A stretch of 64,000 bases of DNA from Alicyclobacillus sp. SO9 (GTDB lineage: Bacteria > Bacillota > Bacilli > Alicyclobacillales > Alicyclobacillaceae), in assembly GCF_016406125.1 (NCBI RefSeq), contig NZ_CP066339.1:3224001-3288000 (forward strand). The letters are read 5' to 3'. Both the position numbers and the translations under genes were made by a program. The notes under the pieces are model-generated. The model was given only the letters and a program-made list of their open reading frames with translations. It had not been told where the DNA came from and did no database searches. Positions 14,940-38,699 of the stretch are shown one piece after another. Numbering within the stretch: position 1 is the stretch's first letter; each line of letters begins with the position of its first letter.

Positions 14940-15657
14940 GTGCTTATTCACTCTTTTGAGCCACAATTCGCCCGAATAAGCTCCTCTGGGATCTCTATTG
15001 TCGCACCCCGCACGCGCCCCGCTTGATTTCGGGGAGCCGTCGAGAATTTTGCGTAAGCAGACATGTAAGGTTCCATGCGTTTTACAGTCGTTTGTATTAA
15101 AAATAGATTTGGAGGAAGGCGTCCCTTCGGACGCCTTCATACCTTTTCCTACGTATTGTCATTGTCCCTTCGGTTCCCCGTGCGTCTCCCAACCTCATTT
15201 CCGGGGGCCAACAAACCCGCGCGGGCCTGGCTAATGTGGGGCCAACTGGGCAATAGACCCCTGACAGGTGCTTATTCACTCGCTCAAGCCACAGTTTGCC
15301 CGAATAAGCTCCTCTGGGATCTCTATTGTCGGTCTCCACCCCGGTTTTCGGGGGCCAAGTGGACAATAGACACTTGGCAGGTGCTTATTCACTCTCTTGA
15401 GCCACAGTTTGCCCGAATAAGCTCCTCTGGGATCTCTATTGTCGGTCTCCACCCCGGTTTTCGGGGGCCAAGTGGGCAATAGACACTTGACAGGTGCTTA
15501 TTCACTCTCTCGAGCCACAGTTTGCCCGAATAAGCTCCTCTGGGATCTCTATTGTCGGTCTCCACCCCGGTTTTCGGGGGCCAACTGGGCAATAGACACT
15601 TCGCAGGTGCTTATTCACTCTTTTGAGCCACAGTTTGCCCGAATAAGCTCCTCTGGG
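14940..15657. repeat. 113-bp structured tandem repeat array, left part
   Basis: One isolated unit begins at 14943. It is followed by a 228-bp block and then by four units beginning at 15271, 15384, 15497 and 15610, exactly 113 bases apart. Each unit contains three palindromes: GCTTATTC paired with GAATAAGC across about 28 bases, a CCCCG-GTTTT-CGGGG hairpin, and imperfect hairpins of about 28 bases bounded by AATA and TTATT. The last unit is cut by the insertion sequence at 15658. Open frames through the array are not conserved, because 113 is not a multiple of three, and no gene is supported here. Confidence 0.92.
14984..15211. repeat. 228-bp direct repeat, copy 1
   Basis: This block recurs at 17615-17842 with only three differences by eye. 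It contains a CCCCG-CTTGATTT-CGGGG hairpin and a strong 10-bp stem with a CTTC loop (GAAGGCGTCC ... GGACGCCTTC, about 15117-15140). Together with the flanking 113-bp units it forms a higher-order duplication with a period of about 670 bases once the insertion sequence is removed. Neither copy is supported as coding. Confidence 0.92.
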
Positions 15658-15670
15658 AGACAGTCTATTA

Positions 15671-15697
15671 ACAGGAGCTGTAAGGCTCCTGTTTTCC
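15671..15697 (+). terminator. Terminator inside the left end of the IS
   Basis: ACAGGAGC and GCTCCTGT pair across a six-base loop and are followed by TTTTCCTT on the plus strand. It could stop transcription entering the element from the left, and the stem may also end the transposase transcript. Confidence 0.7.
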
Positions 15698-15813
15698 TTC
15701 GTTAGGGAATTTTTTCAAAGGAATTGGATGCAAATGGTATATTTTTGGTTGTCAGTAACAGAAATCGTGGGATTTCCACTGTCAATCCCTCCATTTTTTA
15801 CTCTCGCTTTCTT

Positions 15814-17481
15814 CTAAGAGCAGACGGGGGCCTCTAACGGTTTACAACGTTCCACCAGGGTCTTTACCATGACTTTGACGTTGACGACCATGGACGTAAT
15901 TTTGACGTCAATTCGCAATTTCTTTCGGCCACGGGTTCGCGGTCTTTCGAGCCCGTGGTGGCGTTTCATCTCGTTATTGGTGCGCTCAATTTCGTACCGA
16001 GCTCGTAACGCCTCTTGCCCTTGCGCGCTCGCATTATACTTCTTTGCCTCTTGCAGCAGTGCCCAATAGTCACTTACAAATACAGTGCGACCTTTGGCAT
16101 GGTCGGTACACTGCCCACGTAGAGAACATTGTCCACAAACTTGTTCGGCAAATCCATATTGCGAACCCTTAGATTTCTTAATGTGAGTCCTGCGAACCGA
16201 TCTCTGCCCTTCAGGACACACGACCACGTCATCTTCCGGTAAATATGTGAAGTCCTCCGTTCGAAATGCCTTGCCAGAAGGGTTGGTGACTTTAGTCAAT
16301 GGTGCGGTCAGATGAATGTGTAACCCGTTGACAAGTTTATCGCGATTCTCCCCGCTTCCGTAAGCTGCGTCTGCCACCACTTCCTTGGGGCGTTTGTCGA
16401 ACTGCTCCACGACCGTCTTCACCACGTTTTCCAGTGTAACCCCATCCGCTTCATTACCAGGGATCGGCTCTGCATTGAGGACTAAGTGAGAGCTTGCAGA
16501 TTCCACTACTTGCGTCTTGTCACCCAGAAACGCCAGCTTCTTGGATTTGTGCCCTATACGTACCTCTGGGTCATGGGCACTGACTACGCGGTCGGCGGGT
16601 TTCTCCTTTTGACCCAGTTCAGCGTATTGAAAGCCTCTATTCTGTGGTCCACTGCTGTCAGATGAACCGGATGAGTCCTCATCCTGTTCCTTTGAGTCCA
16701 CATTTTCACGCAAAATGCGCAGCAGCACCTCGCATTGTTGCTCTGCCGTCTCCTGTTCACTGGGGTCTTCCCATTTTGTAACCCCCTCGTCAGCCTCTGT
16801 GCGTTTCATCCATGCCACCAATCCAAACCCTAAAACGCATAGGTTACTGAAGGCGAGATTCCTTTCAGTCCCCCGAACATCACGTTTGAGCTTGCGGAAG
16901 AACACCCCCACATCCATGTCTGCTTTCAGTTGTGCATAATGTGCTGGGCTCCTACGTTTCAGGTGACGTACAAGCTTTTGGGCAGCCTGTTGAATAAGCT
17001 CGTATGTACTTGGCGCGGCAACATTGGCATAGGTGTGGAACGCATCCACCAACCAACGGTCATCGTCTTGGCCCCACATACCGTGGTTTAGGGCTTGAGC
17101 AAGGATGTTCATATGACAGGCATGAAATATGTCCGCCCCAAGTCGACTCCTGTCTAATGCAATTGTGCTATGGTCAAATTTGGCGAGCGAAACCGGAACA
17201 CCCAAGAATCGCTTGATAAAGATGTCACCGACGATCTTTAATTCCATCTCTCGGTCGGAAATATTGTAGTATCGCTGTATGAGATGGATTTTCAGTTTCA
17301 ACGACGGGGCGTAGGGGTGCTGGCCGAGCGGCGAGTACAAAGGAGCACACAGCTTATTTGCGAAGGAAAAGTCAATGTGTTTCGCCACCATATCCCAGAA
17401 TGGGTGAGGTGGTATCGCCGAGTACACCATTAGGTCTTCGAAGGAAGCCTGCTCAAAGTTCTTGTACTTAACCCCGCTCAT
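15814..17481 (-). CDS. Transposase, IS1182-like DDE family
   Basis: A 555-aa intact transposase. The N-terminal DUF772-type region includes the LKIHLIQRYYNISDREME segment; a charged, Ser/Gln-rich linker lies around residues 225-300; the DDE catalytic domain follows, with ADAAYGSGENRDKL carrying an acidic residue and the late ERTNNEMKRHHGLERPRTRG segment carrying the glutamate. A cysteine cluster, CGQCSLRGQC, lies before the last third. Size, layout and a 1.9-kb element fit the IS1182 family. The start is followed downstream by no frameshift, so the enzyme may be active. Confidence 0.88.
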   Translation of the reverse strand: MSGVKYKNFEQASFEDLMVYSAIPPHPFWDMVAKHIDFSFANKLCAPLYSPLGQHPYAPSLKLKIHLIQRYYNISDREMELKIVGDIFIKRFLGVPVSLAKFDHSTIALDRSRLGADIFHACHMNILAQALNHGMWGQDDDRWLVDAFHTYANVAAPSTYELIQQAAQKLVRHLKRRSPAHYAQLKADMDVGVFFRKLKRDVRGTERNLAFSNLCVLGFGLVAWMKRTEADEGVTKWEDPSEQETAEQQCEVLLRILRENVDSKEQDEDSSGSSDSSGPQNRGFQYAELGQKEKPADRVVSAHDPEVRIGHKSKKLAFLGDKTQVVESASSHLVLNAEPIPGNEADGVTLENVVKTVVEQFDKRPKEVVADAAYGSGENRDKLVNGLHIHLTAPLTKVTNPSGKAFRTEDFTYLPEDDVVVCPEGQRSVRRTHIKKSKGSQYGFAEQVCGQCSLRGQCTDHAKGRTVFVSDYWALLQEAKKYNASAQGQEALRARYEIERTNNEMKRHHGLERPRTRGRKKLRIDVKITSMVVNVKVMVKTLVERCKPLEAPVCS

Positions 17482-17614
17482 ATCTCCAACTCCCGCTTGT
17501 TTTTTGATAATTCAATTATACACGAAAACAAGCGAATTATGGATAAATATCAAGATATAACGAGTTAAATTCAAAAATTGGAGACTCTTATCCTATCTAG
17601 TTCATCGACAGTCT

Positions 17615-17842
17615 CTCTGGGATCTCTATTATCGCGCCCCGCACGCGCCCCGCTTGATTTCGGGGAGCCGTCGAGAATTTTGCGTAAGCAGACATGTAAG
17701 GTTCCATGAGTTTTACAGTCGTTTGTATTAAAAATAGATTTGGAGGAAGGCGTCCCTTCGGACGCCTTCATACCTTTTCCTACGTATTGTCATTGTCCCT
17801 TCGGTTCCCCGTGCGTCTCCCAACCTCATTTCCGGGGGCCAA
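17615..17842. repeat. 228-bp direct repeat, copy 2
   Basis: The second copy of the block at 14984-15211, with three visible substitutions. The near identity implies recent duplication or ongoing recombination between copies. Confidence 0.92.
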
Positions 17843-18151
17843 GTGGACAACAGACACTTGACAGGTGCTTATTCACTCCCTCAAGCCACAGTTTGCCCGA
17901 ATAAGCTCCTCTGGGATCTCTATTGTCGGTCTCCACCCCGATTTTCGGGGGCCAACTGGGCAATAGACACTTCGCAGGTGCTTATTCACTCTTTTGAGCC
18001 ACAGTTTGCCCGAATAAGCTCCTCTGGGATCTCTATTGTCAGTCTCCACCCCGGTTTTCGGGGGCCAAGTGGACAATAGACACTTGGCAGGTGCTTATTC
18101 ACTCTTTTGAGCCACAGTTTGCCCGAATAAGCTCCTGCGGGATCTCTATTT
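17615..18151. repeat. 113-bp structured tandem repeat array, right part
   Basis: The continuation of the array after the insertion sequence. The second 228-bp block (17615-17842) comes first; units then begin at 17868, 17981 and 18094, again 113 bases apart. The last copy decays at about 18150 into a different short repeat. The units differ from one another mainly in the bases of the hairpin loops. No gene is supported in this stretch. Confidence 0.92.
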
Positions 18152-34973: not shown

Positions 34974-36029
34974 TCAGTGTGTCAAAAGATTGGCTTCCTC
35001 CATGGACATTCCGCTGTGAAGGGCTAAATTCAGCCCTTTGGCAATAATGTTGGCAACGTCCTCCACGAATTCGTCAATTTCCTTCGGCGTGACCATCAGA
35101 TTGTTTCCCAGCGGTTCAAGCAGCTCCTTCACCATTTGACGCTTTTCCGGTCCGCTCAATTGGCCGAGGATCTCACTGGCACCGTTTCCCGGCACAGACT
35201 GCTGCAGTTGCTGTACGACTTTCTCAATCGCGTCGCCTGCAATCGTTGCGGCATCAAGCACGGTGGGTACGCCAATTCCTATCACAGGGACACCGAGGGT
35301 CTGCTCAGTAATGCCTTTGCGATGATTCCCGACTCCTGACCCAGGATGAATGCCATTGTCGGCGACTTGGATGGTTGCGTTAACGCGAGCGATCGATCGC
35401 GATGCCAACGCATCAATCGCCACCACCAACCCCGGCTTTACATGCTCAACAATTCCTCTGACAATCTCCAGCGTTTCAATCCCTGTGATGCCCAAGACCC
35501 CCGGAGAGACCGCCGAAACCACACGATATCCTTCACCCGCCAGTTCTGGCATCATGGACATCAAGTGTCTCGTCACAAACAGGCGCTCCACCGCTAACGG
35601 ACCCAATGAGTCCGGTGTGACTTGAGCATTGCCTAAGCCCACAACCAAGACCGGAGCCTCCTCGTCCGCGGGGATAAGCTTTCGCATTTCATCTGCGAAG
35701 CGTTCTACAACTCGGCCTTGCAAATCGGGATCATGGCGCCTCAACTTTGGTGCTTCCAGAGATATGTAGGTCCCCATCTCTTTGCCAATTTCCCGCTCAC
35801 CTTCAGGCGTCTCCACAGTGACACGAGTCACGGTAAGGTCCTCGTCGTCCGTATCCGTCGCCATCGTAACACCGTTAAACTCCCTGGCATCACGCTGCCC
35901 CCGAGCCAGTTCGTGTGCCTCAACAGCCAGGTCAAGCCGAGGACTGGCGAGTCTGTCCGCAGGCTCTCGCCACTTGTTGTTTTGGATGTTATGTGCAGAT
36001 TGGAACCAATGGTATTTGCTGTAGGCCAT
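34974..36029 (-). CDS. gpr: Germination protease GPR
   Basis: Aspartic-type protease that degrades the small acid-soluble proteins when spores germinate. The family core is clear: RLDLAVEAHELA at the zymogen processing region, then GLGNAQVTPDSLGPLAV and GIGVPTVLDAATIAGD. I choose ATG 36029 with GGAGGG upstream, giving 351 aa, close to the normal length. The longer frame to 36260 runs through a hexanucleotide repeat and encodes an Ala-Pro run that is not credible. It is normally SigF/SigG dependent; no convincing promoter was found. Confidence 0.95.
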   Translation of the reverse strand: MAYSKYHWFQSAHNIQNNKWREPADRLASPRLDLAVEAHELARGQRDAREFNGVTMATDTDDEDLTVTRVTVETPEGEREIGKEMGTYISLEAPKLRRHDPDLQGRVVERFADEMRKLIPADEEAPVLVVGLGNAQVTPDSLGPLAVERLFVTRHLMSMMPELAGEGYRVVSAVSPGVLGITGIETLEIVRGIVEHVKPGLVVAIDALASRSIARVNATIQVADNGIHPGSGVGNHRKGITEQTLGVPVIGIGVPTVLDAATIAGDAIEKVVQQLQQSVPGNGASEILGQLSGPEKRQMVKELLEPLGNNLMVTPKEIDEFVEDVANIIAKGLNLALHSGMSMEEANLLTH

Positions 36030-36127
36030 CATAAATCCCTCCGTAGAACCATGTTCAATCTCTGTGTAGGAGTAGTTATACCCAAATAGGCTTCGCTTCT
36101 TGTACACCTGCTTATACTGCAGCCAGC

Positions 36128-36226
36128 GGTGGTGCGGTGCGGGTGCGGGTGCGGGTGCGGGTGCGGGTGCGGGTGCGGGTGCGGGTGCGGAAGGGCGCAA
36201 GGGCGCAAGGGCGCAAGGGCGCAAGG
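36128..36226. repeat. GGTGCG-type hexamer and AAGGGCGC octamer repeats
   Basis: About ten copies of a GGGTGC hexanucleotide (36130-36190) are followed directly by four copies of AAGGGCGC (36191-36223). They lie between the divergent gpr and rpsT starts, upstream of both. Such runs are prone to slippage. Confidence 0.95.
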
Positions 36227-36331
36227 GAAAGAGGGAAAGCTTACTCAAGGCTTTCCGCACAGTTTATTTACCAATTGCGATAGAATCAGTCAGAGAATAA
36301 CGTCCAACCGTTAAGGCGGATTGAAAACTTG

Positions 36332-36396: not shown

Positions 36397-36666
36397 GTGC
36401 CAAATATTAAATCTGCTGAAAAACGTGTTCGCATCACGACTAAACGCAATCTTCACCAGGTTGCCCTTCGTTCTGCACTCCGAACTACTTTAAAGAAGTT
36501 TGAAACTGCAGTTGTAGGGAACGATGCCGAACAAGCTCGCCTAGCCTTGAATATTGCGACGCGCGCGCTCGACAAAGCAGCTTCCAAAGGCCTTATCCAC
36601 AAAAATAAAGCCAGCCGGAAAAAGTCTCGCTTGACGCGTCGATACAATACGATGGCTCAAGCATAA
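36397..36666 (+). CDS. rpsT: 30S ribosomal protein S20
   Basis: Small-subunit protein that binds 16S rRNA. The 89-aa basic sequence starts MPNIKSAEKRVR and ends with KNKASRKKSRLTRRYN, as in the family. The GTG start has a near-perfect AAGGAGGTGA. It is transcribed against its neighbours, as in B. subtilis, where rpsT is divergent from gpr. Confidence 0.97.
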   Translation: MPNIKSAEKRVRITTKRNLHQVALRSALRTTLKKFETAVVGNDAEQARLALNIATRALDKAASKGLIHKNKASRKKSRLTRRYNTMAQA

Positions 36667-36872: not shown

Positions 36873-37402
36873 CCTTTGGACCGACACCTTTGGACCCCTG
36901 GCGCAAGTTAAGCTCCTTAGACGAGCTTATTCATTCCAAGGGTTTGCCTAGGGCACAAATAGGCACTCCACAAGCGCTTATTTGCTGCTTTGCAGCCGAA
37001 ATCCAACGAAAATCCCAGATTAAGCTCTTCTGAAGTGCTTATATGGCACAGAGCAGCGGAAAATTGTCAAATAAGCTCTTCTCGGATGCTTATTCTCCTC
37101 AATCCTCATGCTATTTCAACGTTTGGGTCCGCGCGAACCTGGCGCCAACCGCGCCAACCGTCGAGTTGCCGCTTTTGGACCGACTCCTTTGGACCGCTGG
37201 CTCAAGTTAAGCTCCTTAGACGAGCTTATTCATTCCAGGAATTTGCCTAGGGCACAAATAGACACTCCACAAGCGCTTATTTGCTGTTTTGCAGCCGAAA
37301 TCCAACGAAAATCCCAGATTAAGCTCTTCTGAAGTGCTTATATGGCACAGAGCAGCGGAAAATTGTCAAATAAGCTCTTCTCGAATGCTTATTCTCATCA
37401 AT
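36873..37402. repeat. 300-bp-period duplicated hairpin repeat
   Basis: Two copies of about 230 bp (36873-37104 and 37172-37402) lie 299-300 bases apart. Each holds several short palindromes built on AATAAGC and GCTTATT, for example AATAAGC-TCTTCTCGGAT-GCTTATT and TAAGCTC-CTTAGAC-GAGCTTA. The string AATAAGCTC[C/T]TCT[G/C]GGAT is shared with the 113-bp units near 15-18 kb, so the two patches belong to one family. Open frames crossing both copies are side effects of the duplication. No gene is supported between rpsT and holA. Confidence 0.9.
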
Positions 37403-37452
37403 CCTCAATCCTCAATCCTCAATCCTCAATCCTCAATCCTCAATCCTCAATC
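37395..37452. repeat. CAATCCT heptamer repeat
   Basis: About eight copies of a 7-bp unit directly after the second 300-bp repeat copy. The first copy ends in just one such unit (near 37098), so the run expanded after the duplication. Confidence 0.92.
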
Positions 37453-37539: not shown

Positions 37540-38577
37540 TCATGAAACAGAAGCACCAAAGTTGCCTTCTTTGGCACCTCCGCAGCGCAAGACAATCCAG
37601 TCAATCGCCTGATCCAAAGCCTGCCGACCGCTTTTCACCATAAACTCGGTATCAGCGATCACACATAACAGGTCTTCAATCCTCGAAATCGACAGGTTTT
37701 TTGCTTGTTCTGCCGCCATTTTGACCGAGTACGGATGTGCCCCAACTCGGCGAGCAACATCTCGTTGACTTTCACCCTTCGCTAAATATACTTTGGCAAA
37801 CCACATTAATCTAAGCTGTCTTGCCAACAACGAAAACAAAGCAAACCCATCATACCCGCTAATCTCGATTTCCCTTAATGCCTGAAATGACAAAGACAGT
37901 TTTCCAGCAATGACACCTTCAATCCAACGAAAAACATTATCCTCAAGCGGCACAGGCGTAATTTCTGCCACGTCCCGTAACTGAATGACACCATCGGTGT
38001 AAGACGAGAGTTTTTCAATTTCTCGCTCAGCCTGCGTCACTGACTCTGTTCTTCGCCACAATTCACCGAGAGCTTCTCTGTCGGCCCTCAATCCGTGTTC
38101 TCGTACAAGAGCAGACAAGAATTTAGAGGCTTCATTCGCTTTCGGCGTATTACAGTTAATTACAGGGAACTTTTTTAGAGCCTTGACGGCTTTTTTGCGT
38201 TCGTCCAACTTTTCAGCAAGACAGGTAATGACAAGAGTGTGTTCAGGCACCGGACTTTCGAGGTACTTTTCCAACGCCGTCAAATCGTGTTTTCCTCTTG
38301 CACCTGCAGTTAGTCCCACACAGTTATCCAGTACAATCAGCGATTCCTGTGAGAAAAGAGATACGGTTTGACATTCTGCTAGGGCAGCGTCAACTCCAGT
38401 CTCTTCATAGTAGAAACGGTGTATATCGATGGAAGTGCCACCTGTTTGCTTCTCAAGTTGACTCTGCAACTGCTTCACAAACCTATGAATCAAGCTGAGT
38501 TCCGTGCCAACCAAGGTATATACTGCATGCTGCGGATTCTCCGCCATTGACTCCATCGCATAATTCCATTCGATCAC
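37540..38577 (-). CDS. holA: DNA polymerase III subunit delta
   Basis: Clamp-loader subunit that opens the beta sliding clamp. The family pattern is visible: VYTLVGTELSLIHRFV at the N-terminus, LVITCLAEKLDERKKAVKAL in the middle, and the C-terminal FSLLARQLRLMWFAK helix bundle. I choose the GTG at 38577, with GGGGCGGTG upstream, giving 345 aa; the frame can be extended seven codons. It lies near comEC, as in Bacillus. Confidence 0.94.
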   Translation of the reverse strand: MIEWNYAMESMAENPQHAVYTLVGTELSLIHRFVKQLQSQLEKQTGGTSIDIHRFYYEETGVDAALAECQTVSLFSQESLIVLDNCVGLTAGARGKHDLTALEKYLESPVPEHTLVITCLAEKLDERKKAVKALKKFPVINCNTPKANEASKFLSALVREHGLRADREALGELWRRTESVTQAEREIEKLSSYTDGVIQLRDVAEITPVPLEDNVFRWIEGVIAGKLSLSFQALREIEISGYDGFALFSLLARQLRLMWFAKVYLAKGESQRDVARRVGAHPYSVKMAAEQAKNLSISRIEDLLCVIADTEFMVKSGRQALDQAIDWIVLRCGGAKEGNFGASVS

Positions 38578-38594
38578 GTTTGCACCGCCCCTAA

Positions 38595-38699
38595 CCACTC
38601 AGTATACCAACCGCAGCACTGCTCCAACTGGGAACTCTGCAAAATGCCTCTATTGCGCAGCTCATAAAAACAGTGCAACGCCTCCCACTCAGTATACCA
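38595..38699. repeat. 15-bp direct repeat flanking the ndh terminator
   Basis: CCACTCAGTATACCA occurs at 38595-38609 and 38685-38699. One copy lies in the loop of the terminator hairpin, the other just upstream of the holA ribosome site. Confidence 0.85.

What the first reader, a model, noticed from the sequence alone, without database searches (positions are those of the whole stretch)
36873..37402. A second repeat patch shares the hairpin core of the first
Seen: two 230-bp copies with a 300-bp period contain hairpins such as AATAAGC-TCTTCTCGGAT-GCTTATT. The string AATAAGCTC[C/T]TCT[G/C]GGAT is shared with the 113-bp units 20 kb away. Similar arms recur in both orientations with variable loops. 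Inference: a genome-wide family of about 25-base palindromes that is assembled into different composite repeats.
Basis: seen in the sequence. Interest (0 to 1): 0.62.

Follow-up and report, generated by a model that had tools for sequence, protein, structure and literature searches.

The report
Four evenly spaced palindromes in bacilli
Between genes of this bacterium, and of distant relatives, lie about 190-base DNA elements built of four 25-base mirror sequences set whole turns of the DNA helix apart; two kinds of jumping gene land at their exact centres, but what the elements are for is not known.

Summary
The window lies in a 5.29-Mb member of the family of Alicyclobacillus acidiphilus. AATAAGC-N(6-16)-GCTTATT occurs 31 times in that genome, always with an 11-base gap, and never in the reversed control. 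With up to 2 mismatches there are 182 sites against 12 in the control. The sites come in fours, start to start 51, 61-63 and 51 bp apart, making an element of about 188 bp. The window holds two such elements (36907-37094 and 37206-37393). The 113-bp units 20 kb away have the same geometry (51+62).

The same geometry occurs in A. acidiphilus, and in Cytobacillus, Rossellomorea, Neobacillus and (51/72/51) Paenibacillus. In this genome spacer sequences are near random between elements (27-34% identity), yet spacer lengths hold within 1-2 bases. Spacings of 51, 61.5 and 72 are 5, 6 and 7 helical turns.

All 8 copies of two unrelated insertion sequences sit exactly on the dyad of such a 25-mer. In Alicyclobacillaceae the flanks carry locus-specific short tandem repeats, G-rich to the left and C-rich to the right.

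Most likely a DNA-level, helically phased binding-site element. It is not a RAYT-type REP: the genome has no Y1 transposase. The binding protein and the benefit are unknown.

The parts
36907..36931 (.). element 1, palindrome 1 (GTTAAGC-N11-GCTTATT)
   Evidence: 2 mismatches to AATAAGC-N11-GCTTATT
36958..36982 (.). element 1, palindrome 2, 51 bp after palindrome 1
37019..37043 (.). element 1, palindrome 3, 61 bp after palindrome 2
   Evidence: exact match
37206..37393 (.). element 2: palindromes at 37206, 37257, 37318, 37369 (51/61/51)
   Evidence: 93% identical to element 1 over 250 nt
37398..37452 (.). (TCAATCC)x7.9, pyrimidine-rich short tandem repeat on the right flank
   Evidence: such repeats flank 75 of 124 element sides against 9 of 134 background stretches
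15252..15656 (.). tandem 113-bp units (palindromes at 15252, 15303, 15365, 15416, 15478, 15529, 15591 and the left 15 bases of one at 15642): the same 51/62 geometry
15657..17615 (-). IS1182-type insertion sequence (ends GAGACAGTC / GACAGTCTC), inserted on the dyad of a 25-mer with a 5-bp target duplication (TCTGG)
   Evidence: transposase ORF 15814-17481 (-), Pfam PF13751, PF05598, PF01609
17616..17630 (.). right half (15 bases, including the TCTGG duplication) of the palindrome split by the insertion sequence
17849..18150 (.). second part of the 113-bp array (palindromes at 17849, 17900, 17962, 18013, 18075, 18126), followed by a C-rich short tandem repeat
36400..36666 (+). rpsT (ribosomal protein S20), gene to the left, running towards the elements; 5' end not determined
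   Evidence: PF01649, E 1.8e-28
37540..38598 (-). holA (DNA polymerase III delta), gene to the right, running towards the elements: convergent intergenic region

Best explanation
The patch is two tandem copies of a non-coding intergenic DNA element of about 188 bp. Each is made of four 25-bp near-palindromes whose start-to-start distances (51, 61-63, 51) are whole numbers of helical turns. Shown: the architecture, its conservation across Bacillales genera, its absence from most close relatives, and insertion of two unrelated ISs at the dyads. Inferred: it works at the level of double-stranded DNA, as a row of binding sites for a symmetric protein (dimer or pair of dimers per palindrome) that must sit on one face of the helix to assemble over the four sites. 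The protein is unknown. As side effects (inferred), the symmetric, exposed dyads attract transposases, and repeated breakage or synthesis near the complex leaves short tandem repeats of fixed strand polarity on both sides.
For: Fixed 11-base gap in 31/31 exact sites. Spacing classes in several lineages: 51 +/- 1, 60-63 and 72, with one 55 and nothing else between; 51/5 = 10.2, 61.5/6 = 10.25, 72/7 = 10.3 bp per turn. In 19 non-redundant elements of this genome the 26-nt spacers are at random identity (0.27, 0.29) but 17/19 keep length 26. In A. acidiphilus, palindromes 1 and 2 form more inner pairs within a site than shuffles (z 3.1, 3.2), more than any between-site pairing. Element direction does not follow the neighbouring gene: 4 of 11 co-directional in one-way settings (hand count). 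8/8 copies of two IS families lie exactly on the dyad. Left flank G-rich in 55/62 loci, right flank C-rich in 51/62, 44 both and 0 the reverse, whatever the gene orientation.
Against: No binding protein was identified and no binding data exist. The inner 11 bases are poorly palindromic in this genome (no within-site covariation). Insertion at dyads could reflect sequence preference of the transposases rather than an unusual DNA state. The strongly polarised flanks are confined to Alicyclobacillaceae; elsewhere the trend is weak, 12 loci with it and 4 against (hand count). The searches fixed the arms and some spacings beforehand, so rarer geometries could have been missed.
Confidence: 0.5

Rival explanations
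1. A non-autonomous mobile element (MITE-like or REPIN-like): the four-palindrome unit is moved by a transposase or recombinase acting in trans, and its geometry is that of a transpososome, not of a host function.
For: Patchy occurrence: 240 sites (<=1 mismatch) in A. acidiphilus and 0 in the other sampled species of its genus. One locus between two conserved gene stretches has 451 bp in A. acidiphilus where a relative has 114 bp and no element. Tandem and dispersed copies. Inverted ends AATAGAGATC...GATCTCTATT in many copies of this genome.
Against: No Y1 (HUH) transposase gene in this genome. No target-site duplication defined at an element end. Dispersed copies in A. acidiphilus average only 58% identity, so no recent burst is seen. 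Spacer length is kept where spacer sequence is random, so constraint continued after dispersal. None in viral contigs.
Confidence: 0.3
2. A structured RNA: the elements are transcribed as 3' regions and act as hairpin arrays (stabiliser, terminator or small RNA).
For: In this genome they prefer convergent intergenic regions (12 of 23 against 33 of 186) and some lie downstream of what look like rRNA operons. Single folds are more stable than shuffles (z -2.7 to -8.2). A C-rich flank after the hairpins could suit Rho.
Against: Consensus folding is weak on either strand. No Rfam match. Mispairs at inner position 10/16 are more often A-C than G-T on the oriented strand. Element direction does not follow gene direction. 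Loose spacers between hairpins should not need fixed lengths. Flank polarity holds for every gene arrangement.
Confidence: 0.12
3. The elements are dedicated landing sites for insertion sequences: kept because they soak up transpositions outside genes.
For: 5/5 copies of the IS1182-type IS (5-bp duplication) and 3/3 copies of the IS4-type IS (9-bp duplication) sit exactly on palindrome dyads. The chance expectation per copy is about 6e-5.
Against: Other genomes rich in the elements lack a close relative of the IS1182-type transposase, so this IS cannot maintain them there. Target use explains neither fours nor spacing.
Confidence: 0.08

Closest known systems
REP / BIME / REPIN elements mobilised by RAYT transposases (PMC2817692, PMC3116915, PMC3733652)
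   Same: Short intergenic imperfect palindromes in high copy, regularly spaced, singly or in tandem clusters; species-specific abundance; can be IS targets.
   Different: No GTAG or CGTC tag next to the palindrome, no Y1 transposase in this genome, four sites in fixed helical phase, and spacing kept without spacer sequence.
dRS3 repeats and neisserial intergenic mosaic elements (PMC3898611: ATTCCC-N8-GGGAAT)
   Same: Short palindrome with fixed arms and a fixed-length variable core, genome-wide, in intergenic arrays with other repeats, and a target for an incoming mobile element.
   Different: Other sequence and gap (7-11-7 rather than 6-8-6), no RS cassettes, fixed 51/61/51 geometry, other phylum.
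REP sequences as specific insertion targets of ISs (PMC1525189) and IR-targeting IS1272 of the IS1182 family (PMC5678879)
   Same: Several ISs insert into one palindromic repeat family; IS1182-family members are said to target palindromes.
   Different: Here the palindrome is kept and split on its dyad with a 5- or 9-bp duplication, whereas IS1272 replaces the inverted repeat and leaves no duplication; two unrelated IS types use the same dyad.
bcr1 and stem-loop repeat families of Bacillus (PMC2267715)
   Same: Interspersed stem-loop repeats in Bacillaceae; Bhal-1 (74 bp) is near the length of a palindrome pair (76 bp).
   Different: Sequences of Bhal-1 and Bant-1 were not available to compare; bcr1 was listed there as 167 bp with no such geometry described in the passages read.

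Membership tests
RAYT-type REP/BIME | Intergenic, high-copy, imperfect short palindrome | tested here: met
RAYT-type REP/BIME | GTAG (or CGTC) tetranucleotide at one end of the palindrome | tested here: not met
   GTAG in 4 and CGTC in 11 of 776 palindrome ends; definition from PMC3733652
RAYT-type REP/BIME | Cognate Y1 transposase (RAYT) in the genome | tested here: not met
   no PF01797 match in this genome, while 25 of 41 sampled genomes have one
dRS3/NIME | ATTCCC-N8-GGGAAT palindromes between RS elements | tested here: not met
   AATAAGC-N11-GCTTATT, other arms and gap; definition from PMC3898611
MITE | Terminal inverted repeats | tested here: inconclusive
   AATAGAGATC...GATCTCTATT in part of the copies of this genome, not in A. 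acidiphilus
MITE | Target-site duplication at insertion | tested here: inconclusive
   empty site found, but flanks too diverged and repeat-filled to define ends
Known structured RNA family | Match to an Rfam model | tested here: not met
CRISPR array | Identical repeats with unique spacers of near-constant size | tested here: not met
   repeats differ within one element, spacers alternate 26/36/26 and recur between copies
ParB parS or Noc sites | parS or NBS core sequence | tested here: not met
   0 of 97 elements; core sequences recalled from memory

The most novel reading that the evidence does not exclude
A previously undescribed class of chromosomal DNA element spread through Bacillales: a four-site, helically phased palindrome array that assembles an unknown protein complex. 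In Alicyclobacillaceae the complex provokes symmetric local DNA synthesis, which builds new short tandem repeats, G-rich on the strand whose 3' end points at the element (the polarity seen at telomeres), and its dyads serve as exact landing sites for unrelated transposons.
Probability: 0.25. Interest if true: 0.85.

Novelty: new variant of a known kind. Interest (0 to 1): 0.62.

Why it matters
Intergenic palindromes are usually dismissed as REP-like debris. Here the spacing between four palindromes is kept across genera while the sequence between them is random, which is strong evidence of function or of a nucleoprotein machine that can be tested directly. The exact, two-family insertion of transposons at the dyads offers a natural assay of the state of these palindromes in the cell. 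The polarised tandem repeats beside the elements suggest a repeat-generating process that could be studied in a culturable bacterium.

Tried and rejected
RNA reading: RNAalifold on 43 non-redundant A. acidiphilus elements gave only the four short stems on one strand and almost nothing on the other; Rfam gave nothing. Cloverleaf reading (right arm of one palindrome pairing with left arm of the next): between-site pairing is not above controls in A. acidiphilus and only weakly so in this genome (z 1.6 and 2.4). RAYT/REPIN: no Y1 transposase in the genome. Flanks as complementary arms of a large hairpin: left and right flanks of one locus pair no better than flanks of different loci (mean rank 0.54 and 0.61). 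Replication-fork model for the flank repeats: in this genome repeats lie on either side in both chromosome halves (read from then on the assumption that the origin is near coordinate 0; not tested formally). Transcription as cause of flank polarity: same polarity in ++, --, +- and -+ settings. Prophage origin: no match in viral contigs. Literature: text searches for the arms, for palindromic repeats in Bacillales and in Alicyclobacillus found no description; the library is open-access only, so this is weak evidence of novelty. One pattern search had a miscounted gap and was repeated correctly.

Full report
What is in the window. It holds two copies of about 250 nt, 93% identical, period 299. 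Each copy contains four 25-bp near-palindromes of the form AATAAGC-N11-GCTTATT at start-to-start distances 51, 61 and 51: 36907, 36958, 37019, 37070 and 37206, 37257, 37318, 37369. The '113-bp units' 20 kb away are the same thing in tandem: palindromes alternate at 51 and 62 bp (51+62 = 113), at 15252-15656 and 17849-18150.

Chance. In the 5.29-Mb genome the pattern AATAAGC-N(6-16)-GCTTATT has 31 exact matches, every one with a gap of 11, and none in the reversed control. With up to two mismatches there are 182 against 12. Of 200 palindromes in elements I read out, 118 are within two mismatches, so the genome holds roughly 300 palindromes, or about 70 four-site units. This is an estimate from loci chosen for having a good site.

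Geometry. A scan of 84,980 species genomes for two exact sites 51 bp apart gave 44 stretches, all but one in Bacillales: Alicyclobacillus acidiphilus, Paenibacillus, Cohnella, Cytobacillus, Rossellomorea, Neobacillus and Pseudoneobacillus; the exception is a metagenomic Solirubrobacterales bin. Reading those loci, the Bacillaceae have 51/61/51 with arms AATAAGCGGA...TCCGCTTATT, Paenibacillus lemnae has 51/72/51, and other Paenibacillus and Cohnella have pure 51-bp arrays; another family member has 52-bp arrays. The allowed distances 51, 61.5 and 72 are 5, 6 and 7 turns of 10.2-10.3 bp. In this genome the two 26-nt spacers of different elements are no more alike than random (0.27, 0.29), yet 17 of 19 have length 26 and two have 25; the middle spacer (0.34) is 36-38. 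Length is kept where sequence is not.

Distribution. In a sample of 101 relatives A. acidiphilus has 240 sites (<=1 mismatch), this genome 82, one further genus 25, and most others, including all other sampled species of the genus of A. acidiphilus, none. In one locus the 451 bp between two conserved gene stretches of A. acidiphilus correspond to 114 bp in a sister species, with neither element nor flank repeats. So elements come and go. The copies within A. acidiphilus average 58% identity, so dispersal was not recent. None were found in viral contigs.

Which symmetry is kept. In A. acidiphilus the inner positions 8-11 and 15-18 of palindromes 1 and 2 pair more often than shuffled columns (z 3.1, 3.2); pairings between neighbouring palindromes stay at or below 1.8, like control pairings. 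Palindromes 3 and 4 show no such excess, and this genome shows little. The unit kept is therefore the single palindrome in A. acidiphilus. Mispairs at 10/16 are mostly C-A rather than G-T on the oriented strand while those at 5/21 are mostly G-T, so there is no consistent sign of an RNA strand. RNAalifold gives a weak consensus. The direction of oriented elements agrees with the flanking genes in 4 of 11 one-way settings (my count).

Insertion sequences land on the dyad. An IS of 1959 bp with an IS1182-type transposase (PF13751, PF05598, PF01609; the family name is my reading of the domain set) splits the window's 113-bp array at 15657-17615. The genome has five full copies, and each lies inside one of these 25-mers, with a 5-bp target duplication that is exactly the central five bases: 10+5+10. 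A second, unrelated IS of 1568 bp (PF01609, DUF4372; IS4-type by my reading) has three copies, each on the dyad with a 9-bp duplication: 8+9+8. Eight of eight by chance, at about 300 dyads in 5.29 Mb, is about 1e-34. REPs as IS targets are known (PMC1525189), and an IS1182-family member, IS1272, replaces inverted repeats (PMC5678879), but two unrelated ISs with different duplication lengths on one dyad is a sharper case. Whether they read sequence or structure is open.

Flanks. Beside the elements of this genome and of A. acidiphilus lie short tandem repeats of mostly 7-15 bp units, different at each locus: TRF finds repeats in 75 of 124 flanks of 250 bp against 9 of 134 background stretches (p about 2e-21). 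They have a fixed polarity: the left flank is G-rich (55 of 62 loci), the right flank C-rich (51 of 62), 44 both and none the reverse, fading by about 150 bp. Polarity does not depend on the direction of neighbouring genes, and left and right flanks are not specifically complementary. In the other lineages the trend is weak. The strand whose 3' end points at the element is the G-rich one. I read this as the trace of local DNA synthesis or repair at the element; that is inference.

Gene context. In this genome elements lie between convergent genes in 12 of 23 scored loci against 33 of 186 other gaps (p 0.0006). ORF calling was crude: rRNA operons and short genes such as rpsT were not called, so the window locus itself was scored as not convergent. 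Several loci appear to lie downstream of rRNA operons (recognised from the spurious ORFs; not tested with an rRNA model).

Mechanism. Fixed phase, random spacers, symmetric sites and no strand preference point to a protein that binds double-stranded DNA at four dyads on one helix face. Shown: architecture, conservation, IS targeting, flank polarity. Inferred: the protein, the complex and its benefit. The chief rival is a non-autonomous mobile element whose geometry is that of a transpososome; the two are not exclusive.

Known relatives. It works like REP/BIME and like the neisserial dRS3/NIME system in being a genome-wide intergenic palindrome family with attached mobile elements. It is not a member of the RAYT-type REPs: no tag and no Y1 transposase. 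It is not dRS3, CRISPR, parS/Noc or an Rfam family. I found no description of it in the open-access literature searched.

Noticed in passing
window 15657-17615 (L197-L201): IS1182-type insertion sequence, five full copies in the genome, all inserted on the dyad of a 25-bp palindrome with a 5-bp duplication.
   Followed up: yes
L210, L211, L212 (G000:C1 about 699318, 1181516, 2308666): 1568-bp IS with an IS4-type transposase, three copies, all on the dyad of a 25-bp palindrome with a 9-bp duplication.
   Followed up: yes
window about 14980-15240 and 17610-17850: A stretch of some 230 bp beside the 113-bp arrays occurs twice (CCCGCACGCGCCCCGCTTGATTTCGGGGAGCC...), so the two arrays belong to one duplicated, IS-split patch.
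   Followed up: no
L001, L006, L009, L010, L011, L015: Near-identical elements that share at least 150 bp of upstream sequence and seem to follow rRNA operons, as expected for operons that evolve in concert.
   Followed up: partly
L057 and other A. acidiphilus loci: Locus-specific G-rich/C-rich short tandem repeats of fixed polarity on both sides of the elements; cause unknown.
   Followed up: partly
L150 (G015), 52-bp arrays: The 52-bp unit holds a second palindrome, GGCGCGATCGCGCC, about three helical turns from the first.
   Followed up: no
window 36131-36190: (GGTGCG)x10 hexamer repeat inside the N-terminal part of the ORF at 34974-36260 (-), perhaps upstream of the true start of that gene.
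   Followed up: no
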